From Verrucomicrobiota bacterium (GTDB taxonomy: Bacteria; Verrucomicrobiota; Verrucomicrobiia; Opitutales; UBA953), in NCBI GenBank assembly GCA_030834165.1, contig JAURFU010000013.1, positions 1-41,597 on the forward strand: 41,597 bases of DNA, written 5' to 3'. Every line of letters starts with the position of its first letter. Within the stretch, counting starts at the first letter, position 1. The translations under genes and the position numbers were made by a program. This document shows positions 504-41,466 of this stretch, one piece after another. The notes below the pieces were generated by a model. The model made no database searches. It saw only the letters and a program-made list of their open reading frames with translations, and was not told where the DNA came from.

Positions 504-524
504 CGCAGGCGTAGTGCGCCTGCG
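504..524 (+). repeat. Stop-adjacent hairpin
   Basis: CGCAGGCG (504-511) pairs perfectly with CGCCTGCG (517-524) around the loop TAGTG, starting 2 nt after the TGA. No T tract follows, so it is not a canonical intrinsic terminator. It is the first of seven gene-end hairpins of this kind in the window. Confidence 0.6.
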
Positions 525-558
525 AGGGGGCACGTGGGCACGGTGACACTTGGACAAG
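525..558 (+). repeat. Repeat family E, copy 1
   Basis: This copy carries GGGGGCACGTGGGCACGG followed by TGACACTTGGACAAGG. The same head recurs near 5247, 12991, 29347, 39631 and 41232, each time shortly downstream of a plus-strand stop codon. Confidence 0.75.
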
Positions 559-579
559 GTGAAACAGAGAGGCAAACCA

Positions 580-633
580 GGTAGGGGCGTGCGGCCCGCA
601 CGCCCGAGGATGACCGGGCCGGTCATCCCTACC
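580..633 (+). repeat. REP/BIME-like double hairpin, copy a
   Basis: The 54-nt element begins GGTAGGG and ends with the exact inverse CCCTACC. Inside are hairpin 1 (GCGTGCG/CGCACGC, loop GCC) and hairpin 2, the near-perfect palindrome GATGACCGGGCCGGTCATC. Each end reads GTAG on its own strand, which is the foot tetranucleotide known for REPs mobilised by RAYT transposases. It can therefore be read as two inverted REPs. It lies beyond the 3' end of the minus-strand ATPase gene. Confidence 0.85.
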
Positions 634-637
634 TTAG

Positions 638-676
638 CCGCAGGTAAAATCCCGGTCTCCGGTTTCCCCTCGGGTG
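638..676 (+). repeat. Repeat family C, right arm only
   Basis: CCGGTCTCCGGTTTCCCC with flanking CGCAGGTAAAATC matches the right arm of the composite C elements found at 5333, 18528, 25499, 29493, 35499 and 39895. No left arm is visible here, so this is a half element next to REP copy a. Confidence 0.65.
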
Positions 677-679
677 TAT

Positions 680-1465
680 TTACCCCCAAGGATTGAGTTT
701 CAGTTTCTCGATCTTGGCTCCGGGCAGACCGAGGAGGCATTCGCCGACTTTGAGACGACTGAGATCGGTGGCCAGCTGGCTCGCGGGCGTGGCCAGCGGC
801 TGGCCGAAATGATTGAGCGGCATGGGTCGGTCGCCGGAAATCTGACGCGTGGGATCGGTCGAGAGCAGCGCCTGCGACATGGTCTTCAGGCAGCGCTTGA
901 AGAAGTGATAGAAGCAGACGTGCGTGCTGAAGAGCGCGAGGAGATCGTCATCGAGGGTGCTGGGCGACTGGCAGGTGACGATGAGCGTATAGCCGGACTT
1001 CACGGCGGTGCGGAGGAGCAGCCCGAAAGTCGAAAGCGCCGAAGATTGGTGCGAGATGTCGACGACGAGGAAACGGCGGGCTTCTCGGTCCGGCGGATTC
1101 TTCACGAGTTCGACATAGAGCGAACGCAGCAGGAGGTCGGCCATAGCGTCACGTCCCGCCCGCTCACAGGCGAGGGTCGCGATGGCGGACGAGCCGAGGA
1201 GATCCGGAGCCGGCGACGGGGCGTTGGGATTGGAGATACCGAAAGTCTCTTCGCCATAGACCTCGCGGCGGAGGCCTTTGATCTTGGCGCCGATGACGTC
1301 GGCATAGTCGATGACGAGCACCTGGGCGCCCGAGGCGACGAGACCAGGGATGATAGCCTCGCGCAGCAGGTGCGATTTGCCCGCGCCAGGAGCGCCGGAG
1401 ATGAGCACATGCCCTCCCCCGATCACCCCTTGGGTGTGATGAGGGGTCCAGACGCCTAAATTCAT
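680..1465 (-). CDS. Solitary HerA/FtsK-like P-loop ATPase
   Basis: A 261-residue cytoplasmic ATPase core. Residues 19-31 give a Walker A motif (GAPGAGKS, 24-31) preceded by the HVLIS strand seen in HerA, FtsK and conjugation ATPases. The Walker B-like strand RRFLVVDIS (130-138) has its Asp at 136 but Ile where most relatives carry the catalytic Glu. TCQSP (164-168) after a KSGYTL stretch resembles the HerA/VirB4 'TQSP' strand. At 261 residues it is much shorter than typical HerA or VirB4 proteins, so it is a bare motor domain. The frame stays open upstream to 1552, but those residues come from REP copy b, so I start at the ATG at 1465. It is transcribed divergently from the RAYT gene and lies between two REP copies. 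DNA or protein translocation is possible; I cannot name the substrate. Confidence 0.7.
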   Translation of the reverse strand: MNLGVWTPHHTQGVIGGGHVLISGAPGAGKSHLLREAIIPGLVASGAQVLVIDYADVIGAKIKGLRREVYGEETFGISNPNAPSPAPDLLGSSAIATLACERAGRDAMADLLLRSLYVELVKNPPDREARRFLVVDISHQSSALSTFGLLLRTAVKSGYTLIVTCQSPSTLDDDLLALFSTHVCFYHFFKRCLKTMSQALLSTDPTRQISGDRPMPLNHFGQPLATPASQLATDLSRLKVGECLLGLPGAKIEKLKLNPWG

Positions 1466-1505
1466 AGGGCGATGGGAGATGAAAGCGGAGAGGAAAGCAA
1501 TCCAA

Positions 1506-1559
1506 GGTAGGGGCGTGCGGCCCGCACGCCTGAGGATGACCGGGCCGGTCATCCCTACC
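1506..1559 (+). repeat. REP/BIME-like double hairpin, copy b
   Basis: Same 54-nt structure as copy a, with CTGAGG in the linker between hairpins. It lies in the divergent gap between the ATPase start (1465) and the RAYT start (1620), so it may overlap promoters of both. Confidence 0.85.
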
Positions 1560-1619
1560 TAGATACAGATGAGGTAATACCTATGTTTCCTCGACATACA
1601 TATAGTCTTCGATGGGTAC

Positions 1620-2054
1620 ATGCTGCAGAGAAAGACGCTTCCTCATAGAGTCCCAGAATGGGTAGATCGCGATGACCACTGGTTCATTACCATCTGTTGC
1701 ACACCGCGAGGAGAAAACCAGCTAGCCAAGGCTAGCGCCTTCGGAACCCTGGCCGAAAGCATTCGCTTCAGGGAAGATAGAGGAGATCTAAAAATAGCCA
1801 TCCTCACAGCCATGCCTGACCACCTACACTTTATCTGCCAAATCAACCATTACCGGGGAATGTCCAAAATCATTAAAGAACTGAAAGGCTATATCGCAAA
1901 AACGGAAGGCGTTCGCTGGCAGGAAGGCTATTTCGACCACCGACTACGAAGCCCGAACGAGTACTTGGATAAACACGCCTATGTCAGACGCAATCCAGTA
2001 CGCGCGGGCTTCTGTGCGACCCCCGAAGACTGGCCCTACACCCTCGAGAGGTAG
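1620..2054 (+). CDS. REP-associated tyrosine transposase (Y1/IS200-like)
   Basis: A 144-residue single-strand DNA endonuclease/transposase of the Y1_Tnp (HUH) superfamily, acting in the cytoplasm on hairpin DNA. The HUH motif is His68-Leu-His70 in MPDHLHF. The probable catalytic tyrosine is Tyr121 in YVRRNPVRAG, preceded by GYFDHR, a RAYT signature order (HUH, FxDR-like, Y..NPVRAG). The N-terminal HWFITICC strand and C-terminal PEDWPYT tail are also family-typical, so the protein looks complete and intact. The gene has lower GC and more A/T-ending codons than its neighbours, suggesting transfer. Its TAG stop (2052-2054) lies inside the GGTAGGG foot of REP copy c, so coding sequence and repeat overlap. 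The ATG at 1620 is the first in frame. Confidence 0.88.
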   Translation: MLQRKTLPHRVPEWVDRDDHWFITICCTPRGENQLAKASAFGTLAESIRFREDRGDLKIAILTAMPDHLHFICQINHYRGMSKIIKELKGYIAKTEGVRWQEGYFDHRLRSPNEYLDKHAYVRRNPVRAGFCATPEDWPYTLER

Positions 2055-2112
2055 GGGCGTGCGGCCCGCACGCCCTTGTATCGAACGGATGACCGGGCCG
2101 GTCATCCCTACC
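2050..2112 (+). repeat. REP/BIME-like double hairpin, copy c
   Basis: Same feet and hairpins as copies a and b, but a longer linker (TTGTATCGAAC) makes it 63 nt. It supplies the stop codon of the RAYT gene and sits between two convergent genes, where its symmetric hairpins could end transcription from either side. Confidence 0.85.
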
Positions 2113-2151
2113 TAGATACAAGAGCGACCGATCCGGTGCTGCCCCTGCCGC

Positions 2152-2904: not shown

Positions 2905-2975
2905 ATTCGAGGTAATGAGGACTGGAGGGCCAGAGACAAGAGCGGACAATTAGTCTCGAGGACTCGAAGGCTGCA

Positions 2976-3029
2976 GGCAGGGGCGTGCGACTCGCGCGCC
3001 CGAGGATGACCGGGCCGGTCATCCCTACC
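2976..3029 (+). repeat. REP/BIME-like double hairpin, copy d (diverged)
   Basis: The left foot is GGCAGGG instead of GGTAGGG, and hairpin 1 is GCGTGCG/CGCGCGC, which still pairs through one G-U. Hairpin 2 and the right foot CCCTACC are unchanged. It lies in the leader of the minus-strand gene starting at 2904. Confidence 0.8.
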
Positions 3030-3050
3030 CAGCGAGGCTAAGCCGCTTAT

Positions 3051-3191: not shown

Positions 3192-5234
3192 ATGTCCACC
3201 AGCAGGCTGAATTTCAAACTCGAGGCGACGGCGACCGGTTCGCGCGCCCGGGCGGCGACGTTCCGCACCCTGCACAACGAGGTGAAGACGCCCCTGTTCA
3301 TGCCCGTGGGCACCCAGGCGACCGTCAAGGCCCAGACCTTCGACACCCTGCTCGCTTCCGGCTCCCAGATCCTGCTGGCGAACACCTATCACCTGCTCCT
3401 GCGCCCGGGTCCTGAGGTCTTCAAGAGCTTCGGCGGCATCCATAAGTTCACCGGCTGGGAGAAATCCTTCCTCACGGACTCCGGCGGCTTCCAGATCTTC
3501 TCGCTACCGCATGCGCGCAATATGAAGGAAGAAGGCGCCGAGTTCCGTAGCTACGTCGACGGCTCCATCCACCTGCTCAGCCCCGAGACCAGCATCGGCA
3601 CGCAGGTCGCCATCGGCAGCGACATCATGATGGTGCTCGACCAGTGCATCCCCTCGACGGCCGACAAAGCCACCGCCAAGGAAGCGTTGGAGATCACCCA
3701 CCGCTGGGCCATCCGCAGCCTCAAGGCCCGCGGAGATTCGCCCCAGTCGATGTTCGCGATCGTCCAGGGCGCCCTCTACCCGGACCTTCGCAAGATCAGC
3801 GCCGACGGCCTGACCCAGCTGCCCTTCGACGGCTTCGCGATCGGCGGCCTCGCCGTCGGCGAAGGCAAGAGCGAGCGCGAGGATACCTGTGAGATCGCCG
3901 CGGCGATGCTCCCGCACGACAAGCCGCGCTACCTGATGGGCGTCGGCACGCCGCTGGACCTGCTCGAAGCCGTGCACCGCGGCGTCGACATGTTCGACTG
4001 CATCATCCCGAACAAGGTCGCCCAGTTCGGCACCGCCTACACCTCCCGCGGTATCCTCCAGCTGCGCCGCTCGATCTATAAGTTCTCCGAGGAGAAACTC
4101 GACCCGACGTGCCAGTGTCCGGTCTGCGCCAAGTATTCGCGCGGCTACCTGCACCACCTCACCAAGACGCAGGAACCGCTCGGCTGGACGCTGCTCGGAC
4201 AGCACAACATCTACTTCTACCATCAGATGATGCGGGAGATCCGCCAGAGCATCCTGGATGACACCTTCCTGGCCTACTACCACCAGCGCCGTCAGGTCCT
4301 GCAGGTCGAGGACATGGACAATCCCGCCGTCCCGCCGAAGGTCGGCAAGGAACGCCGTCCGCGCACGCTGGGCGATTACGAGATCCACATCCACGAAGAA
4401 GGCTTCGCGAACATCCGGCAGATTTCCTCAGGCGAGATCATGCACCTCCGTCGCGCGCCGATGGACGAAGCCAAGGCGTTGTACATCGACCAGGCCAAGC
4501 TCGCCGAACGCCTGAAACTACCGGAAGGCAAGACGCCGGAGACCGCCGCCCCGATCGTCATCTGGGACCTCGGTCTGGGCGCAGCCGCCAACGCCATGGC
4601 GTCGATCTATTGCTACGAATCCGAGGCCGCCAAGGGCCCCGTGCGCCGGATGCGCGTCATCAGCTTCGAGAACGACCTCGATTCGCTCAAGCTGGCCATG
4701 ACGCATAAGAACCGCTTCGAGTACCTGCGTCACTCAGGCCCCGACGCCGTGCTCGCCCGCGGCACGTGGCAGTCGCGTCAATATCCCGGCCTGAGCTGGG
4801 ACCTGCATGTCGGCGATTTCTGGGCGCTCGCCGCGAAGGCCTCCGCCGCGCCGGACATCATCTACTACGACTTCTTCTCGCAGAAGACCAACGCCGACTG
4901 CTGGGAGCTCGAGTCGTTCAAGAAGCTCTTCGCCTTCTGCGATCCGCAGAAATCGGCGCAGCTCTTCACCTATTGCTCGTCGACGACCATGCGGGTCGCG
5001 TTGCTCAACGCTGGCTTCTTCGTGGCCGTCGGCGAAGGCACCGGATCGAAGAAAGAGACCGTCATCGCGCTGAGCCCCGGTTTCCCGACTCCCTGCCCGC
5101 ACACGCTCGTCGGTCGCGAATGGCTCGAACGCTGGCGCCGCTCGTCGAAGAAATTCCCGGACGGGCTGACGCCGGAACAGCAGGCCGCGGTGGAGAAGAG
5201 GATTGAGGGGCATCCGCAATTTTCAGCAGGCTGA
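3192..5234 (+). CDS. tgt: tRNA-guanine transglycosylase fused to MnmC/MnmD-like methyltransferase
   Basis: A 680-residue cytoplasmic tRNA-modification enzyme. Residues 1 to about 370 are bacterial TGT, which exchanges G34 of GUN-anticodon tRNAs for preQ1. Visible are Asp96 in LTDSGGFQ, GGLAVGE (219-224), the nucleophile region DMFDC (Asp269) and the zinc ligands Cys307, Cys309, Cys312 and His338. Residues about 395-680 resemble the MnmC/DUF752 methyltransferase: WDLGLG (458-463) as SAM motif I, FEND (492-495) as the acidic strand end, DIIYYDFFSQ (555-564) and TYCSSTTMRVALLNAGF. Usual TGTs are about 370-400 residues, so the extension is a real second domain. Both activities would act on wobble position 34. 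Oddities: PNKVAQFG replaces the usual PTRNARNG-type loop, and DQC replaces DEC near the substrate pocket. ATG 3192 lacks a clear Shine-Dalgarno. Confidence is high for TGT and moderate for the methyltransferase. Confidence 0.88.
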   Translation: MSTSRLNFKLEATATGSRARAATFRTLHNEVKTPLFMPVGTQATVKAQTFDTLLASGSQILLANTYHLLLRPGPEVFKSFGGIHKFTGWEKSFLTDSGGFQIFSLPHARNMKEEGAEFRSYVDGSIHLLSPETSIGTQVAIGSDIMMVLDQCIPSTADKATAKEALEITHRWAIRSLKARGDSPQSMFAIVQGALYPDLRKISADGLTQLPFDGFAIGGLAVGEGKSEREDTCEIAAAMLPHDKPRYLMGVGTPLDLLEAVHRGVDMFDCIIPNKVAQFGTAYTSRGILQLRRSIYKFSEEKLDPTCQCPVCAKYSRGYLHHLTKTQEPLGWTLLGQHNIYFYHQMMREIRQSILDDTFLAYYHQRRQVLQVEDMDNPAVPPKVGKERRPRTLGDYEIHIHEEGFANIRQISSGEIMHLRRAPMDEAKALYIDQAKLAERLKLPEGKTPETAAPIVIWDLGLGAAANAMASIYCYESEAAKGPVRRMRVISFENDLDSLKLAMTHKNRFEYLRHSGPDAVLARGTWQSRQYPGLSWDLHVGDFWALAAKASAAPDIIYYDFFSQKTNADCWELESFKKLFAFCDPQKSAQLFTYCSSTTMRVALLNAGFFVAVGEGTGSKKETVIALSPGFPTPCPHTLVGREWLERWRRSSKKFPDGLTPEQQAAVEKRIEGHPQFSAG

Positions 5235-5246
5235 AAATTGCGGATG
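5211..5246 (+). repeat. Perfect 16-bp hairpin across the tgt stop codon
   Basis: CATCCGCAATTTTCAG (5211-5226) is exactly mirrored by CTGAAAATTGCGGATG (5231-5246) around the loop CAGG. The left arm encodes the last residues and the TGA lies in the right arm. No T tract follows. The right arm looks like an inverted copy of the gene's own 3' end. Confidence 0.9.
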
Positions 5247-5320
5247 GGGCACGTGGGCACGGTGACACGTGGGCAAGGGAGTGAACTAGAGGCCCGGAGG
5301 CTCAGAGGCTCGGTTGACCA
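5247..5320 (+). repeat. Repeat family E, copy 2
   Basis: GGGCACGTGGGCACGGTGAC is followed by CACGTGGGCAAGG and then CTAGAGGCCCGGAGGCTCAG. The GAGGC-word tail is mirrored by an inverse module (5751-5781) just before the next gene, so the pair brackets the whole 557-nt gap. Confidence 0.75.
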
Positions 5321-5386
5321 GAACGAGGCAGCACTCAAAGGGTGCACCATAGGGAAACCGGATAGTAGGCTGGGGGAAATCGTCTT

Positions 5387-5529
5387 CGGGTGTCGGGTGA
5401 CGGGCATGGGCATCGGGAGTTCAGGTGCCGGCCGTTCGGCCATCAGGTGCTGGCAACCGGGTTCCGGCGGCTGAAGGCAGAACGGCTGCCTCCCGAAAGG
5501 CCGACCACCGTGGCCATCACCCGTCACCT
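5387..5529 (+). repeat. Repeat family D, copy 1
   Basis: The element opens with GGGTGTCGGGTGACGGGCAT and closes with GGCCATCACCCGTCACC, so the ends are inverted repeats. It contains the palindromic GGCCGTTCGGCC and a CCGGGTTCC block. The only other copy is at 35552-35693, also inside a C element. Confidence 0.7.
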
Positions 5530-5548
5530 GGAAATATGCAGCCACAGC

Positions 5549-5576
5549 TAGGGCAGCACGCGGTGCTGCCCCTACC
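5549..5576 (+). repeat. Short TAGGG-footed single hairpin
   Basis: TAGGGCAGCAC pairs with GTGCTGCCCCTA around the loop GCG. On the minus strand it begins GGTAGGGGCAGC, giving the same GTAG foot as the REPs with a different hairpin. It may be a one-hairpin REP-type unit. Confidence 0.6.
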
Positions 5577-5640
5577 TCAATTCCGAACAAACCTCCCGGT
5601 CTCCGGTTTCCCGTTGGGCGCTGTAGCTTTTATCCGTCAT

Positions 5641-5731
5641 CGATTCAGTCATCTGTCATCGACCCAGCCCTCTTCCCTTCAATTCAGCCCTCTATTCAGT
5701 CCTCAACGCAGTCCTCCATTCAGCCCTCTGT
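5641..5731 (+). repeat. Repeat family F, copy 1 (12-nt period array)
   Basis: Degenerate 12-mers run ATTCAGCCCTCT, ATTCAGTCCTCA, ACGCAGTCCTCC, ATTCAGCCCTCT, preceded by CATCGATTCAG-type words. The array is pyrimidine-rich on the coding strand and ends 61 nt before the dctA start. Confidence 0.8.
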
Positions 5732-5750
5732 TTTTAGCTTTCCCCTCCTT

Positions 5751-5781
5751 GCCTCAGGCCCTCCGGCACTCTAGTCCTCGG
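5751..5781 (+). repeat. Inverse E module (E')
   Basis: GCCTCAGGCCCTCCGGCACT followed by CTAGTCCTCG is close to the reverse complement of the GAGGC-word tail of family E at 5285-5312. Its twin is at 29730-29763. Confidence 0.55.
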
Positions 5782-5791
5782 CCCACCCCCC

Positions 5792-7075: not shown

Positions 7076-7130
7076 GTGCAAAGGTGCAAATCGGCCTGCG
7101 GCCTGTGCAAAGGTGCAAAAGTGAGAGACA
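7076..7130 (+). repeat. Repeat family B, copy 1
   Basis: GTGCAAAGGTGCAAA, a short hairpin (GGCC TGC GGCC), then GTGCAAAGGTGCAAAAGTGA and GAGACA. The GTGCAAAGG words are direct repeats on both sides of the hairpin. This copy stands outside any J arms. Confidence 0.75.
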
Positions 7131-7138
7131 GAGTTACA

Positions 7139-7322
7139 TTCAGGTCTCGGGTCTCAGCTGATCGGGTATCAGGTGCGGGTGATAATGTGCAAAGGTGCAA
7201 ATGCGGCGTGGCCGCGTGCAAAGGTGTAAAGGTGAGAGACATCCAAACAGGCCCGAACCTGAACCTGATGCCGAATACCCCAACCCGGGACCTGATGACT
7301 GAGACCAGGGACCCGAGAACGG
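7139..7322 (+). repeat. Repeat family J with B core, copy 1
   Basis: The left arm is an array of GGTCTC, GGGTATCAGGT and GCGGGT words. The right arm (7251-7322) carries the complementary ACCTGATG, ACCCGGGACCTGATG and GAGACC words. A B element (7187-7247; GCGGC GTG GCCGC hairpin) sits at the centre. The arms would pair imperfectly into a long stem. Confidence 0.65.
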
Positions 7323-12990: not shown

Positions 12991-13070
12991 GAGGGGGCAC
13001 GTGGGCAAGGTGATACGTGGACAAGGATTGCAAATCAGGGCCCGGAGGCTCAGAGGCTCGGTGGATCAGA
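12991..13070 (+). repeat. Repeat family E, copy 3
   Basis: GAGGGGGCACGTGGGCAAGG, then TGATACGTGGACAAGG and GCCCGGAGGCTCAGAGGCTC. It is preceded by a 6-bp GGA-loop hairpin, as several other copies are. Confidence 0.75.
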
Positions 13071-13303: not shown

Positions 13304-13425
13304 CCTCTGTCATCGACTCAGTCCTCTGCCATCGATTCAGCCATCTTCTCCTCAATTCAGCCCTCAACGCAGTCCTCAATTCAGTCCTCCATCTTTCATC
13401 CTTTCCCCCCATCTTCCATCGTGCA
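13304..13425 (+). repeat. Repeat family F, copy 2
   Basis: CATCGACTCAGTCCTCTGCC words are followed by 12-mers ATTCAGCCCTCA, ACGCAGTCCTCA, ATTCAGTCCTCC. The array ends 15 nt before the next start codon, so it is part of its leader. Confidence 0.75.
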
Positions 13426-14653: not shown

Positions 14654-15069
14654 AGGTCTAGAGCCAGGGCTAGGGCTGGGGCTAGGAATACCAGAGGCCC
14701 GGAGGCTCGGAGGCTGGTGGACCAGAGAGCACCGCTTCGGGTCTCGGGTCACGGCTGATCGGGTATCAGGTACGGGTCATCTGGTGCGGGTACGGGTGCG
14801 GGTATTAATGTGCAAAAGCGCAAATACGGCATGGCCGCGTGCAAATGTGCAAAGGTGAGAGACATCCAAAAAGTCCCGAACCTGAACCTGATGCTGAACA
14901 CCCGAACTCGAGACCTGATGGCCGAGACCTGGGACCTGAGAATGTTTTGGCGATGTCCGGTTTCCCCTTGAGCGGAATAAGAGTCAGTTACAGCGGATTA
15001 AGGTCATATCGGTGGATTGCCATGGAGGAGAACGGAGGGCTCAATCTGCTCACCCCAACCCACCCCGCC
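14635..15069. other. Intergenic repeat mosaic, 435 nt
   Basis: No gene is visible. After the stop hairpin come a CTAG/CAGGG-word tract (14658-14687, shared with 7036-7068), a truncated E tail (14691-14728), J arms with B core (14738-14945), and a lone C right arm (14949-14977). The last 90 nt before the start codon hold nothing I can identify. Confidence 0.7.
14738..14945 (+). repeat. Repeat family J with B core, copy 3
   Basis: Left arm words TCGGGTCTCGGGTCACGG, GGGTATCAGGT and GGTGCGGGTACGGGTGCGGG; right arm CCCGAACCTGAACCTGATG and GAGACCTGGGACCTGAG. The B core at 14810-14872 has hairpin CGGC ATG GCCG. Confidence 0.65.
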
Positions 15070-16528: not shown

Positions 16529-16676
16529 TCTCAAAGGGAGACCGGAAACCGGATGATTGGCTGGGTGGCGTAAAGGTAGGGGCGTGCGGCCCGCACACCC
16601 TTGGATGACCGGGCCGGTCATCCCTACCTCGAGACAGAGATCAGCCCACCGGTCTCAGGCTCCTCTTTGAGTTAAC
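16529..16676 (+). repeat. Composite repeat C, copy 2, carrying REP e
   Basis: Left arm CTCAAAGGGAGACCGGAAAC (16529-16548) with GATTGGCTGGG; right arm CCGGTCTCAGGC...TCTTTGAG (16647-16672). A complete REP element lies between the arms. Confidence 0.65.
16575..16628 (+). repeat. REP/BIME-like double hairpin, copy e
   Basis: 54 nt with GGTAGGG/CCCTACC feet. Hairpin 1 is GCGTGCGG CCCGCACAC with one changed base; hairpin 2 is intact. It sits inside the arms of C copy 2. Confidence 0.85.
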
Positions 16677-18407: not shown

Positions 18408-18456
18408 GCAGCCGCGTCCGGGCAAGGGTGCTCGGCCCTACCCCGCGGTATTCAAA

Positions 18457-18510
18457 GGTAGGGGCGTGCGGCCCGCGCGCCCACGGATGACCGGGCCGGT
18501 CATCCCTACC
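18457..18510 (+). repeat. REP/BIME-like double hairpin, copy f
   Basis: 54 nt, feet GGTAGGG/CCCTACC. Hairpin 1 is GCGTGCG/CGCGCGC with one G-U pair; linker CCCACG. Same orientation as all other copies. Confidence 0.85.
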
Positions 18511-18527
18511 TCGTGACAGAGGCAGCA

Positions 18528-18615
18528 CTCAAAGGGGGCAGCAAAGGGAGACCGGATAGTTAGCTGGGGACATATAACCGCAGCATATATTCCGGTCTCC
18601 GGTTTCCCTTTGATT
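18528..18615 (+). repeat. Composite repeat C, copy 3 (no cargo)
   Basis: Left arm CTCAAAGGGGGCAGCAAAGG plus GAGACCGGATAG; right arm TTCCGGTCTCCGGTTTCCCT. Only about 20 nt lie between the arms, so this is an unoccupied form compared with copies at 16529 and 25499. Confidence 0.75.
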
Positions 18616-18697
18616 CGTTGAATCGTTTCGGGTGGCAGGTGGCAGCCTCAGGTGGCGGGTGGCGGGAAGATACCGAACTCTGTGGGGTAGGATGGTT

Positions 18698-18751
18698 GGC
18701 AGGGGCGTGCGGCCCGCGCGCCCACGGATGACCGGGCCGGTCATCCCTACC
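18698..18751 (+). repeat. REP/BIME-like double hairpin, copy g
   Basis: 54 nt with left foot GGCAGGG, hairpin 1 GCGTGCG/CGCGCGC, linker CCCACG and intact hairpin 2. The linker and hairpin match copy f, so these two may be duplicates of each other. Confidence 0.85.
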
Positions 18752-18829
18752 CATGCACGACGCATTGCTTACGGCTTCTCCTTGAGCAAGTTGGCACGGC
18801 CACGCCCTCGATGCCTTCCTTGGTCCGGC

Positions 18830-22811: not shown

Positions 22812-22841
22812 GAGTATTGAGTATGGAGTATCGAGTATAGG
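22811..22841 (+). repeat. GAGTATNGA tandem words, copy 1
   Basis: AGAGTATTGAGTATGGAGTA followed by TCGAGTATAGG. The same words occur at 25411-25441, and in reverse (CCATACTCCATACTCTG) at 25855. Copies 1 and 2 each follow a stop codon closely. The rest of this 83-nt gap has CATCTGTCATC words like those in family F. Confidence 0.65.
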
Positions 22842-25498: not shown

Positions 25499-25675
25499 CG
25501 CTCAAAGGGGGCAGCATAGGGAGACCGGATAGCTGGTAGGGGCGTGCGGCTCGCACGCCCGAGGATGACCGGGCCGGTCATCCCTACCCTACGCGGCCAA
25601 GCCGCGAGCGGTTAGCGGTAAGCGGTTGGCGGTTGGGAGCGGCAAATATTCCGGTCTCCGGTTTCCCTTTGAGCG
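25499..25675 (+). repeat. Composite repeat C, copy 4, carrying REP h
   Basis: Left arm CTCAAAGGGGGCAGCATAGG with GAGACCGGATAGCTG; right arm ATTCCGGTCTCCGGTTTCCC TTTGAGCG. REP h begins immediately at the end of the left arm. A hairpin CGCGGC CAA GCCGCG and AGCGGTT tandem words fill the rest. Confidence 0.75.
25535..25588 (+). repeat. REP/BIME-like double hairpin, copy h
   Basis: 54 nt with perfect GGTAGGG/CCCTACC feet. The hairpin 1 loop is GCT instead of GCC. Same orientation as the seven other copies. Confidence 0.85.
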
Positions 25676-25729: not shown

Positions 25730-25782
25730 TCCATTCAGGCCTCCATTCAGCCCTCAATACAGTCCTCTATTCAGTCCTCCAG
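25730..25782 (+). repeat. Repeat family F, copy 3
   Basis: Four 12-mers: ATTCAGGCCTCC, ATTCAGCCCTCA, ATACAGTCCTCT, ATTCAGTCCTCC. This is the cleanest four-unit array. Confidence 0.8.
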
Positions 25783-29346: not shown

Positions 29347-29430
29347 AGGGGGCACGTGGGCACGGTGACACGTGGACACGGGGAGACACGAACTAGAGGC
29401 TCCGAGGCCCAGAGGCCCGGAGGACCGGAA
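29347..29430 (+). repeat. Repeat family E, copy 4
   Basis: AGGGGGCACGTGGGCACGG, TGACACGTGGACACGGGG, then CTAGAGGCTCCGAGGCCCAG and AGGCCCGGAGG. It is nearly identical to copy 5 (39631), including the terminator that follows. Confidence 0.8.
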
Positions 29431-29492: not shown

Positions 29493-29602
29493 CCCAAAGG
29501 GGGCAGCAGAGGGAAACCGGATAGGTGGCTGGAAAACATCTCCGCCACCATCAAGAATCATCCCCGCAGGTGACATTCCGGTCTCAGGTTTCCCTTTGAG
29601 CG
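29493..29602 (+). repeat. Composite repeat C, copy 5 (short interior)
   Basis: Left arm CCAAAGGGGGCAGCAGAGGG plus AAACCGGATAG; right arm ATTCCGGTCTCAGGTTTCCC TTTGAGCG. About 45 nt lie between, with no REP or D element. Confidence 0.7.
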
Positions 29603-29615
29603 CCGCAGCCACCCC

Positions 29616-29712
29616 CTGTCATCGATTCAGCCCTCTGTCATCGACCCAGTCATCTCCTGCTCAATTCAGCCCTCCATTCAGCCCTCAACGCAGTCCTCCA
29701 TTCAGCCCTCCG
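29616..29712 (+). repeat. Repeat family F, copy 4
   Basis: CATCGATTCAGCCCTCTGTC words, then 12-mers ATTCAGCCCTCC, ATTCAGCCCTCA, ACGCAGTCCTCC, ATTCAGCCCTCC. The order matches copy 1 unit for unit, including the ACGCAG third unit. Confidence 0.8.
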
Positions 29713-35498: not shown

Positions 35499-35746
35499 AC
35501 TCAATGGGGGCAGCATAGGGAAACCGGATGATTGGCTGAGGGCATAAATCTGCGGGTATCGGGTGACGGGCACAGGTATCGGGATTACAGTTATCGGCCA
35601 TTCGGCCATCGGGAGCTGGCGCCGGGTTCCTGCGACCGAAGGCTGAACGGCCGACTCCCGAGAGGCTGACACCCTTGGCCGTCACCCGTCACCTTCTAGC
35701 ATCATGCCCGCAGGTAACATTCCGGTTTCCGGTTTCCCCTTGAGCG
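35499..35746 (+). repeat. Composite repeat C, copy 6, carrying element D
   Basis: Left arm CTCAATGGGGGCAGCATAGG with GAAACCGGATG; right arm ATTCCGGTTTCCGGTTTCCC CTTGAGCG. Element D occupies 35552-35693. Confidence 0.75.
35552..35693 (+). repeat. Repeat family D, copy 2
   Basis: GCGGGTATCGGGTGACGGGC at one end and GGCCGTCACCCGTCACC at the other. Internal GGCCATTCGGCC and GCCGGGTTCC match copy 1 (5387-5529), with clear divergence between. Confidence 0.7.
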
Positions 35747-35757
35747 CTGCAGCCACC

Positions 35758-35861
35758 ATCTGCCATCGATTCAGTCCTCTGCCATCGACCCAGTCATCTA
35801 CTCTTCAATTCAGCCCTCTACTCAGTCCTCCACGCAGACCTCCGTTCAGTCATCCATTCAG
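35758..35861 (+). repeat. Repeat family F, copy 5
   Basis: 12-mers ATTCAGCCCTCT, ACTCAGTCCTCC, ACGCAGACCTCC, GTTCAGTCATCC after CATCGATTCAG words. The most diverged array; it ends 44 nt before the small membrane-protein gene. Confidence 0.75.
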
Positions 35862-36209: not shown

Positions 36210-39200
36210 ACTCGCGCCCTGCTCTTCGCCCTCACCTGCTTCGCCGTCGGCGTCTCCGCCGCCGACAAGCCGGTCACCGACCACAGCAAACTCAAGACCA
36301 AGGAGGACAAGGCGAATGCCGCCAACTGGCCGGACAACAGCAAGGGCTCGCCGACGCCGCACGCCCCGGCCGAGAACCCGCCGGCCGCGACGACCACCCG
36401 CAGCCAGCAGGTCGCGCCGCCCACCGCCGGTGAACGCGTCGTCTTCATCGGCAACGGCTTCGCCGAGCGCGACACCTACTACGGCCGTCTCGAGACCGAG
36501 CTGCAGCTCCGCTTCCCGCAGCAGGGACTCATCGTGCGCAACATGGGGCGCTCCGGCGACACCCCGGCGTTCCGTCCTCACCCCGCCCGCGCCAGCCAGT
36601 GGGCTTTCCCCGGCGCCGAGAAGTTCCACCCCGAATACGCGCAGCATAACGGCAAAGGCTTCTTCTCCACGCCCGACCAGTGGCTCTATCACCTCAAGGC
36701 CGACACGATCGTCGCCTTCTTCGGCTACAATGAGTCGTTCGACGGACCCGGGCGTGCCGCCAACTACGAAGCCGAGCTCGATGCGCTCGTCGCGCACTCC
36801 CTGAGCAAGGCTTACAACGGCAAGACCGCGCCGCGTCTCGTGCTCGTCTCCCCGATCGCCTTCGAAGACCTCTCCGCCGTCCGTGATCTCCCGAACGGCC
36901 AGAAGGAGAACGCCAACCTCGGGCTCTACGTCGCCGCCATGGAGCGCGTCGCCAAGAAGCACGGCCTCACCTACGTCGACCTCTTCCACCCCACCCTCGC
37001 GGCCTACGGCAAGAGCAAGGCTCCTTACACCGTCAACGGCTTCGCCCCTTCCGACTTCGGCTACCGCGAGATCGCCAAGCTCCTCGCCGACGGCCTCTTC
37101 GGCGCCACCCAGCGCGCTTCCCAGGCCGACGAATCCCTCGTGAACGCAGCGGTGAAGATGAAGGACACCATGTGGAACACCGACTACTCGATCCTCAACG
37201 GCGTCCACACCCACGGCCAGCGCTACAACCCCTTCGGTCCGCAGAACTACCCCGACGAAATCTACAAGAGCCGCCAGCTCACCGCGATCCGCGACGCGCT
37301 CATCCACGACGTCGCCCAGGGCAGGAAGACCGACCTGGTCGTCGACGACTCCAAGACGCTGGTCCTGCCGCCCGTGCCCACCAACTTCAAGCCGAGCGAG
37401 AAGAACGGCAACCCGACCGAGTTCCTCTCCGGCGAGGCCGCCATCGAGAAGATGAAGCTGGCCCCCGGCTACAAGGTCTCGCTCTTCGCCTCCGAAGAGA
37501 AGTTCCCCGACCTCAAGAAGCCGGTGCAGATGTCCTTCGACGCCAAGGGCCGCCTCTGGGTCGCCACGACGCCGACCTACCCGCACTATCGTCCCGGTGA
37601 CGCGTTCCCCGACGACAAGATCCTCATCCTCGAGGACACGGACGGCGACGGCAAGGCCGACAAGCAGTCCGTCTTCGCCGATAAACTCCATATCCCGATC
37701 GGCTTCGAGATCGCCCCCGAAGGCGTCTACGTCTCCCAAGAGCCGAACCTCGCCCTGCTCGTCGACGACGACAAGGACGGCAAGGCCGACCGCATGGAAC
37801 TGATCCTGCACGGCTTCGACTCCCACGACTCGCACCACGCCATCTCGGCCTACTGCGCCGACGCCTCGGGCGCGTTCTACCTGCTCGAAGGACGCTTCCT
37901 GCACAGCCAGGTCGAGACCCCGTATGGCCCGCGTCGCTGCAACGACGGCGGCGCCTGGCGCTTCGATCCGAAGTCCTATCGCCTCGAGCGCGTGCAGGCC
38001 GACGTCTCCAACCCGTGGGGCTTCTCCTTCGACTATTGGGAGCAGCCGTTCCTGTCCGACGCCTCCTCCGGCGAGAACTGGTGGGCCGTGCCGCTCTCGG
38101 CCAAGGTCCCCTACGGCATCGAGCAGATCAAGGTCGAACAGTTCGTCCCCAAGCGTTCCCGCCCGACGTCCGGCGCCGAGTTCGTCTCCTCCCGTCACTT
38201 CCCCGACGCGCAGCAGGGCGACTTCATGATCTGCAACACGATCGGCTTCCTCGGCATCAGCTTCGGCAAGAAAGCCGACGACGGCGCCGGCTTCACCGGC
38301 AAGGCCAACGGCGATCTCCTGACCTCCACCGACGGTAACTTCCGCCCGGTCGACCTCGAGTTCGCCCCGGATGGTTCGCTCTACTTCATCGACTGGCACA
38401 ACCCGCTGATCGGCCACATGCAGCACAACGCGCGCGATCCGAACCGCGACCACGAGCGCGGCCGCATCTACCGCATCACCTATCCCGAGCGTCCGCTCGT
38501 GAAGCCCGCGAAGGTCGCCGGAGCCTCCGTGGCCGAGCTCCTCGAGAACCTCAAGGAACCCGAATACCGCACCCGCTACCGCACCCGTCGCGAACTCCGC
38601 GGCCGTGCGCCGGGGGAAGTCCTCCCGGCCGTGAAGGCCTGGGTCGCCAAGCTGGACCCCAAGGACCCCGCCTACGAGCACCACCTCTGCGAAGCCATGT
38701 GGGCCACCTGGGCGCAGAACAAGCCGGACGCCGAACTCATCGCCCAGGTCCTCAAGGCCAAGCAGCCCGAAGCCCGCGCCGCCGCCGTGGATGCCATCCG
38801 CCACTCCTTCTGGAAGATTCCGAACCACGTCGCCCTACTCCAGCAGGCCGTGCGCGACGAGAATGCGCGCGTGCGCCTGACCGCCGTCGTGGCCGCCACC
38901 TGGCTGGACAACGCCGAAGGCGCCAAGATCGCCGTGGAGGCCTTCCGCCTGCCCGTGGACCGCTGGATCGGACCCGTCCTGCATTACGCCCTCACGTACA
39001 CGCTCAAGGACGACGTCGACGCCCTCAAGGCCGCCGGCCAGCTCAACCTCGACGGCAACCAGTCCGCCGCGGACTACTTCAGCGGCAAGCTCAAGATCGG
39101 CCAGCCCGTCGCCGAAGCCGGCACCAACTCCAAGCCCTCGCGGAAGCTCACCGCCGCGGAAGAAAAGGTCTTCAAGCTCGGCCGTGAGATCTACTTCCGT

Positions 39201-39572
39201 GACGCGCATTGCGCGACCTGCCACCAGGCCGACGGCAAGGGCATCCCGAACATCTATCCCCCGCTCGCCAAGAGCAACTGGATCGATGACGACGAACGCC
39301 TGACCAAGATCCTGCTCAAAGGCATCTGGGGCCCGATCAAGGTCAACGGCAAGGACTTCGACCCCACCAAGGGCGTCCCGCCCATGATGGGCTTCGGCGG
39401 CCTGCTCAACGATGACGAAGCCGCGGCCGTGCTCAGCTACGTCCGCCTCTCCTTCGGCAACAACGGCAAGCTCGTCTCGCCCGCCACCGTGAAGAAGGTC
39501 CGTGAAGCCACCAAGGACCAGGTCAACTTCTACATGGCCGACGAACTGCTCAAGCAGCACCCGCTGAAATAG
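36204..39572 (+). CDS. Degenerate SGNH-propeller-HEAT-cytochrome fusion
   Basis: A 1122-residue secreted protein. Signal peptide MLTRALLFALTCFAVGVSAA. Residues about 75-300 follow the SGNH/GDSL hydrolase order, but block I is FIGNGF (83-86, no Ser nucleophile) and the last block reads VNGFAPSDFGYREIA instead of DxxH, so the hydrolase looks inactive; block III remains as FFGYNES. Residues about 405-780 are the PVC dehydrogenase-like propeller (YKVSLFASEEKFPDLKKPVQ, LEDTDGDGKADKQSVF, DSHDSHHAISAYCADASG). HEAT-like helices follow, then a cytochrome c domain with CATCH near residue 1004 and a Met-rich PPMMGF ligand loop. It likely oxidises a sugar with the SGNH part as a binding module. It ends before the terminator at 39729. 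Confidence 0.88.
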   Translation: MLTRALLFALTCFAVGVSAADKPVTDHSKLKTKEDKANAANWPDNSKGSPTPHAPAENPPAATTTRSQQVAPPTAGERVVFIGNGFAERDTYYGRLETELQLRFPQQGLIVRNMGRSGDTPAFRPHPARASQWAFPGAEKFHPEYAQHNGKGFFSTPDQWLYHLKADTIVAFFGYNESFDGPGRAANYEAELDALVAHSLSKAYNGKTAPRLVLVSPIAFEDLSAVRDLPNGQKENANLGLYVAAMERVAKKHGLTYVDLFHPTLAAYGKSKAPYTVNGFAPSDFGYREIAKLLADGLFGATQRASQADESLVNAAVKMKDTMWNTDYSILNGVHTHGQRYNPFGPQNYPDEIYKSRQLTAIRDALIHDVAQGRKTDLVVDDSKTLVLPPVPTNFKPSEKNGNPTEFLSGEAAIEKMKLAPGYKVSLFASEEKFPDLKKPVQMSFDAKGRLWVATTPTYPHYRPGDAFPDDKILILEDTDGDGKADKQSVFADKLHIPIGFEIAPEGVYVSQEPNLALLVDDDKDGKADRMELILHGFDSHDSHHAISAYCADASGAFYLLEGRFLHSQVETPYGPRRCNDGGAWRFDPKSYRLERVQADVSNPWGFSFDYWEQPFLSDASSGENWWAVPLSAKVPYGIEQIKVEQFVPKRSRPTSGAEFVSSRHFPDAQQGDFMICNTIGFLGISFGKKADDGAGFTGKANGDLLTSTDGNFRPVDLEFAPDGSLYFIDWHNPLIGHMQHNARDPNRDHERGRIYRITYPERPLVKPAKVAGASVAELLENLKEPEYRTRYRTRRELRGRAPGEVLPAVKAWVAKLDPKDPAYEHHLCEAMWATWAQNKPDAELIAQVLKAKQPEARAAAVDAIRHSFWKIPNHVALLQQAVRDENARVRLTAVVAATWLDNAEGAKIAVEAFRLPVDRWIGPVLHYALTYTLKDDVDALKAAGQLNLDGNQSAADYFSGKLKIGQPVAEAGTNSKPSRKLTAAEEKVFKLGREIYFRDAHCATCHQADGKGIPNIYPPLAKSNWIDDDERLTKILLKGIWGPIKVNGKDFDPTKGVPPMMGFGGLLNDDEAAAVLSYVRLSFGNNGKLVSPATVKKVREATKDQVNFYMADELLKQHPLK

Positions 39573-39630
39573 CAGACTAGTTGACCCGTTGATCAGTTGG
39601 CCGGTTGGCCAGAACGCGGCGGAGTCACTC

Positions 39631-39715
39631 AGGGGGCATGTTGGCAAGGTGACACGTGGACAAGGGGAGATACAAATCAGAGGCTCCGAGGCCCAGAGGC
39701 CCGGAGGGCCAGAAG
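39631..39715 (+). repeat. Repeat family E, copy 5
   Basis: AGGGGGCATGTTGGCAAGG, TGACACGTGGACAAGGGG, then AGAGGCTCCGAGGCCCAGAG. With its terminator it is a near copy of 29347-29477. Confidence 0.75.
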
Positions 39716-39728
39716 GAAAAACAAAGGA

Positions 39729-39760
39729 GACCGGTGGCCGAAAGGTTGCCGGTCTATTTT
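39729..39760 (+). terminator. Intrinsic terminator, near copy of 29446
   Basis: The stem-loop is identical to the one at 29446 (GACCGGTGGCC GAAA GGTTGCCGGTC), but the tail is TATTTT followed by T instead of six T. It would end the transcript of the 36204-39572 gene. Confidence 0.8.
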
Positions 39761-39771
39761 TGGCAGGCAAA

Positions 39772-39878
39772 GGTAGGGCGGGCTCTCCGAGCCCGCCGTT
39801 GGGCGTTGCGAGCAACCTTTCTCGAAAGAGATGCGCTCCTCCGTCCGCGAACGGACGGCTCGGAGAGCCGTCCCTACC
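39772..39878 (+). repeat. 107-nt multi-hairpin element with REP feet
   Basis: It starts GGTAGGG and ends CCCTACC like the 54-nt REPs, but the interior differs: GCGGGCTC/GAGCCCGC (loop TCC), GTTG/CAAC, TTTCTCGAAA, CCGTCCG/CGGACGG (loop CGAA) and GGACGGCTC/GAGCCGTCC (loop GGA). Up to five small hairpins therefore lie between the feet. Only one copy is in the window. Confidence 0.7.
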
Positions 39879-39894
39879 TAAGACGGAGGGCAGC

Positions 39895-39985
39895 GCTCAT
39901 AGGGGGCAGCAGAGGGGAACGGACAGTTGGCTATGGTTTCATACCCGCAGGGTTAATCCCGGTCTCCGGTTTCCCCTTGAAGCGC
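39895..39985 (+). repeat. Composite repeat C, copy 7 (short interior)
   Basis: Left arm CTCATAGGGGGCAGCAGAGG with GGAACGGACAG; right arm CCCGGTCTCCGGTTTCCCCT. No REP or D cargo lies between; the 107-nt element lies just outside on the left. Confidence 0.65.
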
Positions 39986-40124
39986 CGAATCGCTTCGGGT
40001 GGCAGGGGCAGGCGCGGCGAAAGCCGCGGCCTGACCGCTTCTTTTATAGCATTCGATATTATCTACACCCTGCCTCCGCAGGCTGGGATTGACCGAGGCC
40101 TAGGCCTTGGGGTTTATTCCGACC

Positions 40125-41213
40125 ATGCGCATCATCTCCACCCTCGCCCTGGCCCTCACCGCCGCCCTCCTGCCCGCGCAGGACTTCGACTTCAAAGGAG
40201 TGCCTGCCGAGTATGCGGTGACCTTCGCCACCACCAGTTCGCGCGGCCTCAAGATCAGCGATTCGCCGGAGGCCAAGGCCTTCAAGGCCCGCATCGAGAA
40301 ACTCGTCGCCGGCTTCGACAAGAGCGGCCAGGACAGCAAGCAGATGCAGGCGGCCATCAAGAACGCGACCGGACTCGACCTGGAATCCTCCGACAACCGC
40401 TACGCCGGCGGCTTCTCGGTCAGCAAGGAAGGCTCCTTCACCGGCGGCCTGATCGTCCACGGCCGTCATGACAGCGCCAAGCTCGCCGCCCACGCCGGCG
40501 CCAACAATGTGCCCACCCTGCGCGCCGGAAACACCAAGGGCTGGAAAGCCGAGGAACTGATCGCCTCCCTCAGCAGGGAACTCGGCCAGGCCGCCAGCAA
40601 CTTCCCCGCCCCCGGCCAAGACAAGCCTGACAGCCAGGAAGAATTCGGCGTCTTCGACGTCGACAACGACACCCTCGTCGTCGCTCAGCCCAAGGAAGCC
40701 GCCCGCATCATCGGACTGCTCAAGGGGCAAGGCGCGTCCTATGCCCTGCCTGCCGCCCAGCGTTCCGCGCTCGCCGCCACCGGCCGTCCCTACATCGTGT
40801 TCTCCGTCAACGCCGCCAAGCTCCCGGCCACCCCGGAACTCGCCCAGAGCGGCTTCGTCGCCGGCCTCTTCGCCATGGGCGAGAAAGGCAACGAGCAGGT
40901 CATGAAGATGAACGCCGTCTTCTCCTCCAAGGAAAAGGCCGCGCCGATGGCCATGCAGGCCCAGGGCATGCTCGCGATGGCTCCGATGATGCTCGCCGCC
41001 GCCCCTTCCAAGCCCGAGACCGTGGAAGAAAAAGAAATGAAGGCCCTCGCGGGTGAGTTCCTCGCCGGCATCCAGCCCGTCGAAGCTTCCGGCAATCAGG
41101 TCACCCTGACCGCCAAGTGGGATACGCTCAAACTTTACGACATGATGGAGAAGATCGTCGCCATCGGCGCCACCAAGATGAAGGAAATGCCCGCGCCGGC
41201 GGTCGGGAAGTAA
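40125..41213 (+). CDS. Secreted protein of unknown function
   Basis: A 362-residue protein with signal peptide MRIISTLALALTAALLPAQ. I do not recognise its family. It is acidic-basic mixed and rich in Lys and Ala; alternating strands such as YAGGFSVSKEGSFTGGLIVHGR, EFGVFDVDNDTLVVAQPKEAARIIGLL and GRPYIVFSVNAAKLP suggest two similar alpha/beta repeats. A Met/Ala-rich helix (MAMQAQGMLAMAPMMLAAAP) follows, and QVTLTAKWDTLKLYDMMEKI comes near the end. The only Cys-free, haem-free secreted protein of this stretch; it has no CxxCH. ATG 40125 is chosen over one 18 nt upstream because the signal peptide begins here. Single gene, with a stop hairpin at 41215. Confidence 0.75.
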   Translation: MRIISTLALALTAALLPAQDFDFKGVPAEYAVTFATTSSRGLKISDSPEAKAFKARIEKLVAGFDKSGQDSKQMQAAIKNATGLDLESSDNRYAGGFSVSKEGSFTGGLIVHGRHDSAKLAAHAGANNVPTLRAGNTKGWKAEELIASLSRELGQAASNFPAPGQDKPDSQEEFGVFDVDNDTLVVAQPKEAARIIGLLKGQGASYALPAAQRSALAATGRPYIVFSVNAAKLPATPELAQSGFVAGLFAMGEKGNEQVMKMNAVFSSKEKAAPMAMQAQGMLAMAPMMLAAAPSKPETVEEKEMKALAGEFLAGIQPVEASGNQVTLTAKWDTLKLYDMMEKIVAIGATKMKEMPAPAVGK

Positions 41214-41214
41214 G

Positions 41215-41231
41215 CGAAGGCGAAGCCTTCG
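41215..41231 (+). repeat. Stop-adjacent hairpin
   Basis: CGAAGGC pairs perfectly with GCCTTCG around GAA, 1 nt after the TAA. The family E head GAGGGGGCAAGTGGG follows directly. Confidence 0.75.
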
Positions 41232-41290
41232 AGGGGGCAAGTGGGACTCAATAGAGGCCCTGAGGGCCCGAGGACCAGAGGGAGGATGAT

Positions 41291-41321
41291 GGTAGGGTCG
41301 GGACCGCGTCACGACATAGCG
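41291..41321 (+). repeat. Repeat family K, copy 1
   Basis: GGTAGGGTCGGGACCGCGTC followed by ACGACATAGCG. It carries the GTAG foot but not the REP hairpins. The other copy (25821-25853) is in the opposite orientation. Confidence 0.7.
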
Positions 41322-41325
41322 ATGC

Positions 41326-41466
41326 ACTTTCGGGTCTCATGTCTCGGTTGATCGGCTATCAGGCACGGGTCTCCTGGTTCGGGTACGGGTGCAGGCCCGC
41401 ACCTATACCTGGTGCTGAACTCCCGAACCTGGGACCTGATGGCCGAGACCCGTGACCTGAGTATGA
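41326..41466 (+). repeat. Repeat family J without B core
   Basis: Left arm TCGGGTCTCATGTCTCGG, GATCGGCTATCAGG and CGGGTACGGGTGCAG pass straight into right arm GCCCGCACC, CCTGGTGCTGAACTCCCG and GACCTGATGGCCGAGACCCG. The GTGCAAAGG core present in the other three J copies is absent, so this is an empty form. Confidence 0.7.

What the first reader, a model, noticed from the sequence alone, without database searches (positions are those of the whole stretch)
504..41466. Intergenic space is a modular mosaic of about a dozen repeat families with fixed order and polarity
Nearly every gap between transcription units (5235-5791, 7043-7487, 12942-13440, 14635-15069, 16462-16727, 18408-18829, 25399-25948, 29330-29771, 35452-35905, 39573-40124, 41214-41527) is built from the same modules: stop hairpin, E head, GAGGC words, C arms with cargo, J/B, F array, E'. 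Where several occur, the order along the plus strand is the same: E after the upstream stop, F before the downstream start. Junctions inside operons (10627/10640, 11638/11640, 23956/23959, 30659/30662, 32461/32464) have none. In 29330-29771 the E tail and E' match as inverse sequences at 19 of 23 positions, and C arms nest inside them. I know of no described system with this layered layout.
Basis: partly seen in the sequence, partly recalled or inferred. Interest (0 to 1): 0.8.

Follow-up and report, generated by a model that had tools for sequence, protein, structure and literature searches.

The report
Two-sided repeat mosaics between bacterial genes
In a group of uncultured Verrucomicrobiota, many spaces between genes are patchworks of about a dozen short repeat families that almost always face each other across one turning point; compared with a related species they sit in the same places but with largely different sequence.

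Summary
The repeat modules are real and far above chance (644 recurring 11-mers vs 2-6 in shuffles). They cover 71% of gap bases in this window, but most sampled gaps of the genome lack them (105 of 329 carry repeats; 38 of 163 held out). The claimed link to gene direction fails: E lies at 3' and 5' gene ends in proportion to the ends available (strict word 21:16). The rule found instead is stronger: left of one switch point modules are G-rich, right of it C-rich, whatever the flanking gene strands (different-family arrays 253:4 pairs, 48:0 gaps; held-out vote 36:2; two congeners 8:1 and 7:0 gaps). 'C arms' are GTAG-type REP palindromes; their RAYT transposase sits in the window (1620-2054) between REP pairs. 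E and T occur in 16 and 14 of 18 congeners, in 0 of 10 other genera. Against one species with ~91% identical genes, module-bearing gaps are the same gaps (19 both, 34 neither, 1 discordant), yet share a median 45% of letters (86% in module-free gaps). I infer RAYT-driven REP spread plus homology-directed tract copying. Function is untested.

The parts
1620..2054 (+). RAYT (REP-associated tyrosine transposase), 144 aa, with HLH and a Tyr...NPVRAG stretch (motif names recalled)
   Evidence: Pfam Y1_Tnp 29 bits, cut-off 23; only PF01797 match in the genome at E<=0.001; sequence
1503..1561 (.). REP pair left of RAYT: GGTAGGG-hairpin ... hairpin-CCCTACC
2049..2113 (.). REP pair right of RAYT; its head supplies the RAYT stop codon
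579..634 (.). REP pair (C arms)
2975..3030 (.). REP pair (left head GGCAGGG)
16574..16629. REP pair right of a T-type left arm (16533-16553); a degenerate right arm follows (seen by eye, not found by the scan)
18456..18511 (.). REP pair
18697..18752 (.). REP pair
25534..25589 (.). REP pair nested inside T element
39771..39879 (.). REP pair with 49 bases between the arms, another stem family
   Evidence: inverted repeat I5
529..542 (+). E array (8-bp words like CGTGGGCA)
5248..5277 (+). E array
12996..13009 (+). E array
29351..29380 (+). E array
39635..39664 (+). E array
5288..5301 (+). W array (GAGGC words)
14693..14714 (+). W array
29395..29424 (+). W array
39679..39708 (+). W array
5334..5615 (.). 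T element, arms 5334-5361 and 5595-5615, other modules between
18528..18611 (.). T element, arms 18528-18555 and 18591-18611
25501..25670 (.). T element, arms 25501-25528 and 25650-25670, with REP pair and M array between
29493..29597 (.).
35500..35741 (.). T element, arms 35500-35527 and 35721-35741
39896..39978 (.). T element, arms 39896-39923 and 39958-39978
5685..5729 (-). F array (12-bp words)
13346..13390 (-). F array
25736..25780 (-). F array
29655..29711 (-). F array
35799..35855 (-). F array
7076..7230 (+). four K arrays (GTGCAAAG words) with small hairpins and other words between
25608..25639 (+). M array (7-bp words)
22812..22838 (+). P array (GAGTATGG words)

Best explanation
The gaps are a long-lived community of non-coding repeats. 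(1) REP palindromes spread as single-stranded DNA by RAYT transposases (gene and flanking REPs shown here, mobility inferred from the known family). (2) T elements (about 84 bp, hairpin-like) and short G-rich word arrays (words of 6, 7, 8 or 12 bp) are multiplied and reshuffled by homology-directed copying of tracts between module-bearing gaps, plus unequal pairing of the words (inferred). Because such exchange is anchored on modules already present, a copied tract keeps its orientation and its side of the gap. Polarity is therefore inherited, content turns over fast, and module-free gaps stay module-free. The first polarity (G-rich arm on the left) was probably set by palindromic founders and propagated since (assumption). 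Modules that would spoil promoters or operons are lost, so they pile up in convergent and long gaps (inferred from the distribution).
For: RAYT in window with REP pairs on both sides; tagged hairpins on both sides in 16 of the 20 RAYT loci fetched. Single-switch rule: different-family word arrays 277:8 pairs, 52:0 gaps, 253:4 and 48:0 with a strict E word. Same gaps, changed content against G011: 19 both, 34 neither, 1 discordant; shared letters 45% vs 86%, median length change 70 vs 0 bp. 101 aligned tracts of 60-250 bp at >=85% are shared between different gaps, one of 125 bp at 99.2%; 72 of 101 keep orientation and side (given the polarity rule this last count is consistency, not independent proof). 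Genes before the similar tracts at 29330 and 39573 are not paralogs. Left half matches the reverse complement of its own right half better than other gaps' right halves (28.5 vs 22.6, 107 gaps, KS p 1e-6; modest: median rank at 27%, 9% in the top 5%). Any module word: convergent gaps 37 of 56, divergent 21 of 108.
Against: 29 of 101 tracts do not keep side and orientation. Why the 12 counted families have the G-rich arm on the left is assumed, not derived; family S, dropped from later counts, was 3 inward to 5 outward. In G016 the per-gap vote about the midpoint was only 16:11, although pair order was 26:1 gaps. Module-free gaps also carry some C-rich skew before starts, so part of the polarity may be background.
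Confidence: 0.5

Rival explanations
1. The architecture is selected: gaps need a strand-asymmetric, self-complementary stretch (for example a bidirectional terminator or transcript-end stabiliser: G-rich sense RNA after stops, C-rich leaders before starts), and any repeat family can serve as building block.
For: Modules are commonest in convergent gaps. Some orthologous gaps keep a two-sided layout made of different families: N165:12074-12220 K+..K- here, V+V+..V-V- in G011; N165:14730-14910 REPs here, E+E+E- there. Module gaps fold better than shuffles (median z -3.5, 80 gaps; module-free -1.2, 70; coding 0.0, 60). Module-free gaps already have C-rich leaders.
Against: Divergent gaps, which have no 3' end, obey the rule too (10:0 and 5:0). 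T loop orientation is random in co-directional gaps. 1 of 22 T pairs shows a change on both sides. Chimeras of two gaps keep a bit over half of the folding excess (z -2.0). Terminator-like scan of 25300-40300 near chance (17 vs 12.1, sd 3.5).
Confidence: 0.25
2. Nested mobile palindromes: each family is a hairpin element that inserts preferentially into the loop of another hairpin, giving Russian-doll gaps that read the same on both strands.
For: REP pair inside T arms at 25501-25670; REP dimers inside palindromes are published for A. variabilis, T. roseum and H. neapolitanus (PMC3733652 section 7); T+/T- pairs with starts about 57 bp apart in G015, G016, G001.
Against: Most word arrays are one-sided: E on both sides in 5 of 38 gaps, F in 0 of 16. 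At N165:13772 the extra modules of G011 lie outside the shared core yet in the same orientation.
Confidence: 0.2
3. Break healing by addition of G-rich words to 3' ends (telomere-like), then end joining.
For: Polarity is that of two telomere-like ends joined head to head; tandem words of 6-8 bp.
Against: No reverse transcriptase (PF00078) match in this genome or in 17 of 18 congeners, no Ku (PF02735) match in any of 29 genomes (many are incomplete); word families are shared between gaps and species.
Confidence: 0.03

Closest known systems
GTAG-type REP / REPIN with RAYT (PMC3733652, passages and section 7 read; PMC3116915, abstract read)
   Same: GTAG-headed palindromes, head-to-head pairs, RAYT flanked by them, intergenic, several stem families; Opitutus terrae (Verrucomicrobia) is called highly enriched in GTAG repeats.
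   Different: Here REPs are one of about a dozen families in a partly ordered mosaic; the word arrays and T are not REPs.
Neisseria intergenic mosaics (dRS3/RS elements recalled; listing and one sentence)
   Same: Several short repeat families interleaved in intergenic space.
   Different: Sequences not compared; a single-switch polarity or conserved-site turnover is not known to me there (recall).
Intergenic heptamer arrays (TAACTGA in Beggiatoaceae, PMC4679880; abstract read)
   Different: One word, mostly just upstream of starts; here about ten word families, mirrored inside the gap.
REP dimers inserted in palindromes (A. variabilis GTAG-15, T. roseum GTAG-23, H. neapolitanus CGTC-1; PMC3733652 section 7)
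   Same: Nesting of REP pairs inside another palindrome.
   Different: REP plus one palindrome; no word arrays described in that section.

Membership tests
RAYT / GTAG REP (REPIN) system | Y1-type transposase gene | tested here: met
   Y1_Tnp over cut-off; sequence (catalytic motifs named from recall)
RAYT / GTAG REP (REPIN) system | Transposase flanked by inverted GTAG-headed palindromes | tested here: met
   1503-1561 and 2049-2113; 16 of 20 fetched RAYT loci both sides by script, 4 not (L151, L152, L158, L159); 20 of the 31 matches had loci examined
RAYT / GTAG REP (REPIN) system | Same palindromes dispersed elsewhere | tested here: met
   17 sites of one stem (<=2 mismatches) in the genome, 8 of them in this window
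RAYT / GTAG REP (REPIN) system | Mobilised by the RAYT | not testable with these tools
   no population reads or assay
RAYT / GTAG REP (REPIN) system, for modules E,W,Y,P,K,F,M,A,V,Q,T | GTAG head plus hairpin | tested here: not met
   word arrays, or CTCAAAGGG-ended elements for T
MITE (for T) | Terminal inverted repeats, uniform short element | tested here: met
   19 distinct copies of 83-90 bp (4-bp flanks included) in 4 species; 22 at looser settings
MITE (for T) | Target-site duplication and matching autonomous transposase | not tested
   no clean empty site was found; no transposase with T ends was sought
Neisseria-type mosaic (NIME) | dRS3 20-bp inverted repeats around RS units (recalled) | not tested
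   dRS3 sequence not compared

The most novel reading that the evidence does not exclude
A genus-level intergenic architecture in which the sites and the two-sided polarity (one switch point per gap) are conserved while the sequence filling them is interchangeable among about a dozen repeat families: conservation of structure without conservation of sequence, kept either by selection on a strand-asymmetric hairpin or by orientation-inheriting exchange between gaps.
Probability: 0.4. Interest if true: 0.8.

Novelty: new variant of a known kind. Interest (0 to 1): 0.62.

Why it matters
It gives a simple, nearly exceptionless rule for how bacterial intergenic repeats are laid out, in a genus of which 55 genomes are held (this one included; the pair-order rule was examined in three of them, and E/T presence in 19), so it can be tested at scale. 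It separates two things usually confounded, conserved position and conserved sequence, and shows intergenic DNA more than half replaced between two species whose genes are about 91% identical.

Tried and rejected
Rejected: gene-strand (transcriptional) polarity; segmental duplication with paralogous genes (no significant match; a second pair is distantly related, 27% identity over 390 aligned columns); known RNA families (0 Rfam matches at gathering thresholds in the window); break healing with RT and Ku; selection on the T hairpin as seen by covariation (1 of 22 pairs).

Led nowhere: a common linker after all arrays (no motif common to all families; E is often preceded on the gene side by a small hairpin; the P and F regexes matched nothing, Y only 3). 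My coding control for repeats was flawed because sampled segments could overlap (101 of 329 'hits') and is not used. Promoter-like scan of 25300-40300 at chance (1 vs 1.2).

Dropped before later counts: families S (3 inward, 5 outward) and D (1 copy). Adding S back to the pair test with strict E gives 263:4 pairs, 49:0 gaps. The loose E word also hits many places outside gaps (231), so some E hits there are chance; one search repeats the key counts with a strict word (inward 37, outward 1; tandem words 44:1).

Limits: gene calls come from my own codon-bias script, which missed some genes (the RAYTs at 1620-2054 and on C59), so a few 'gaps' contain genes. Module words were set by eye; the held-out test used k-mers fixed beforehand. 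First-sample contigs were partly picked because they hit E; in the held-out set C33, C59 and C129 were picked for RAYT/REP hits, the rest by number. The genome is 81% complete in 150 contigs; repeats break assemblies. G011 gaps 187, 323 and 401 contain N runs and were kept in the counts. Only one species pair was compared gap by gap.
Full report
WHERE IT IS. The window is contig C43 of a 2,251,837-base, 150-contig genome. The nearest named relatives of its sulfatase are Opitutae/Opitutia MAGs such as Opitutia bacterium UBA953, so it is a Verrucomicrobiota of that group; several of those named loci also carry the modules. Gene calls put nearly all window genes on the + strand.

IS IT THERE. Yes. 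In 782,460 bases of this genome I called 329 gaps of >=40 bp; 644 11-mers recur in four or more gaps, against 2-6 in three Markov-shuffled sets. In the window 14 of 16 gaps match other gaps, 71% of gap bases. Elsewhere it is patchy: 105 of 329 gaps overall; 5% of gap bases on the 167-kb contig C62, 12% on C73, none on C57 and C75. In a held-out 361,608 bases, 38 of 163 gaps carry at least ten of the k-mers fixed beforehand. So 'nearly every gap' is a property of the window.

WHAT THE MODULES ARE. (a) C arms are GTAG-headed palindromes in head-to-head pairs. The window holds a RAYT gene, 1620-2054, the only PF01797 match in the genome at E<=0.001, with such a pair on each side; its stop codon lies in the right-hand REP. 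A search with this protein found three RAYTs in this genome (this one included) and RAYTs in 10 of 18 congeners and 3 of 10 other genomes of the order. In 16 of the 20 RAYT loci fetched (of 31 matches) my script found tagged hairpins on both sides; related RAYTs share stems and others differ. (b) T is an element of about 84 bp with inverse ends and a conserved loop word; 19 distinct copies in four species, 22 at looser settings. (c) E, W, Y, P, K, F, M, A, V, Q are arrays of short words. Autocorrelation of module gaps peaks at lags 7 (0.322), 8 (0.313) and 12 (0.298); gaps without modules give 0.26-0.29 at all lags; E words in tandem keep a small vocabulary (CGTGGGCA 32, AGGGGGCA 26, CGGTGACA 11 of 147).

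THE POLARITY RULE. Orienting each recurring word so that it is G-rich, the G-rich form prevails in the left half and the C-rich form in the right half of 68 of 76 gaps (++ 31:3, -- 13:4, +- 14:1, -+ 10:0); held out 36 of 38. By family over 492 gaps, inward:outward per gap half: E 57:13, W 22:3, Y 11:2, T 42:15, R 108:25, P 23:0, K 28:7, F 27:3, M 27:6, A 34:3, V 21:10, Q 18:2; with a strict E word E is 37:1. Families S (3:5) and D (one copy) were dropped. A test without the gap midpoint: for two modules of opposite orientation in one gap, the G-rich one is on the left in 756 of 808 pairs (97 gaps to 1; this includes the two arms of REP and T palindromes), in 323 of 331 pairs of word arrays (67:0), and in 277 of 285 pairs of arrays of different families (52:0); with strict E 253 of 257 (48:0), with S added 263 of 267 (49:0). 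Of 50 gaps with at least four non-REP modules, 34 have exactly one switch (9.9 expected at random), and 44 of 47 with both orientations start G-rich and end C-rich. Congeners, all modules: G045 206:26 pairs (20:1 gaps), G016 224:33 (26:1); different-family arrays 53:6 (8:1) and 15:0 (7:0). The cruder midpoint vote was 21:6 and 16:11; the latter is weak.

NOT TRANSCRIPTIONAL. If the rule followed genes it should fail in convergent or divergent gaps; it does not. E is at 3' and 5' ends 29:28 (loose), 21:16 (strict) or 19:10 (strictest), none different from the 170:138 ends available; F leans to 5' ends, 17:10, p 0.07. The T loop points either way in ++ (9:8) and -- (3:2) gaps; in -+ gaps 4:2, and in +- gaps 10:1, which I cannot explain. 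All six sampled copies of the T variant of this window point the same way, five in ++ gaps and one in a +- gap.

ORDER. Partly fixed, counted from the gene side inward: E, W and P outside R; E outside T and V; F outside T; R outside V. No order for T/R, K/R, A/R, F/R, M/R.

GENUS TRAIT. The E head is found in 16 of 18 congeners and the T word in 14 of 18; both in 0 of 10 genomes of other genera of the order. In small stretches of the two congeners without an E match (G009, G018), 1 of 15 and 1 of 7 gaps held any non-REP module word. GTAG REPs themselves reach further (L155, another genus).

SAME PLACES, NEW CONTENT. Against G011 (flank identity 77-97%, mostly 85-97%, in the 20 gaps printed) 54 syntenic gaps could be paired: 19 carry module words in both, 34 in neither, one only a 7-base REP word in G011 (Fisher p 1e-13). 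Module gaps share a median 45% of the longer gap's letters and differ by a median of 70 bp; module-free gaps share 86% and differ by 0 bp. In N165:12074-12220 a two-sided K layout here is a two-sided V layout there; in N165:14730-14910 REPs here, E words there; in N165:17997-18154 outer arrays and a terminal hairpin are shared and about 200 bp more lies inside in G011; in N165:13772-13955 extra W and REP modules lie outside a shared K core, in the same orientation. Module words were defined on this genome, so families private to G011 would be missed. The gap after tgt differs in module content in each of the near congeners printed.

HOW IT PROBABLY WORKS. Shown: RAYT with REPs; copies between gaps (101 aligned tracts of 60-250 bp at >=85%: 48 same strand and same half, 24 inverted and opposite half, 29 otherwise; one of 125 bp at 99.2%; end type of the two places same 54, different 47); genes before two similar tracts (25949-29329 and 36204-39572) unrelated. 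Module gaps are more self-complementary than shuffles (median z -3.5, 80 gaps) and than chimeras of two gaps (-2.0); module-free -1.2, coding 0.0. Inferred: exchange is anchored on existing modules, so it preserves orientation and side and cannot easily reach empty gaps. That one idea covers polarity, turnover, site conservation and word shuffling. It does not explain why the families have the G-rich arm on the left in the first place.

COMPARISON. REP/REPIN/RAYT systems are well described, including Opitutus terrae and REP pairs inside palindromes (PMC3733652, passages and section 7 read; PMC3116915, abstract). Intergenic heptamer arrays are known (PMC4679880, abstract). Neisseria mosaics were seen only in a listing and one sentence. 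In the listings of searches (open-access library) no title or abstract opening describes the single-switch rule or the repeats of this genus; most subscription papers are not held.

Noticed in passing
window 2049-2054: The RAYT's stop codon is supplied by the GTAG head of the right-hand REP, so gene and REP are fused.
   Followed up: partly
window 41291-41320 and 25823-25862: REP-like arm (GTCGGGACCGCGTCACGAC) matches the REPs beside a RAYT of another congener (L152), not those printed beside this genome's three RAYTs: a REP family perhaps without a resident transposase (genome 81% complete).
   Followed up: partly
window 29440-29478 and 39720-39757: Two nearly identical terminator-like hairpins with T runs follow the E and W arrays; the scan lists the second only.
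   Followed up: no
window 3192-5234: Queuine tRNA-ribosyltransferase with a C-terminal SAM-methyltransferase domain (PF05430) in one frame.
   Followed up: no
G000:C110 7051-7358 and 8499-8765: 125-bp block at 99.2% identity in the right part of two neighbouring gaps: a very recent copy.
   Followed up: partly
L204, L209, L219 downstream of tgt; window gaps at 503 and 12942: E arrays are often preceded on the gene side by a small hairpin of variable sequence.
   Followed up: partly
window, 8 of 17 genome sites of one REP stem: REPs of the window's RAYT are concentrated in this 41.6-kb contig, suggesting local spread.
   Followed up: no
own sample, T loop word in +- gaps: 10 of 11 T loop words in convergent gaps are on the + strand; unexplained, perhaps chance of contig orientation.
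   Followed up: no
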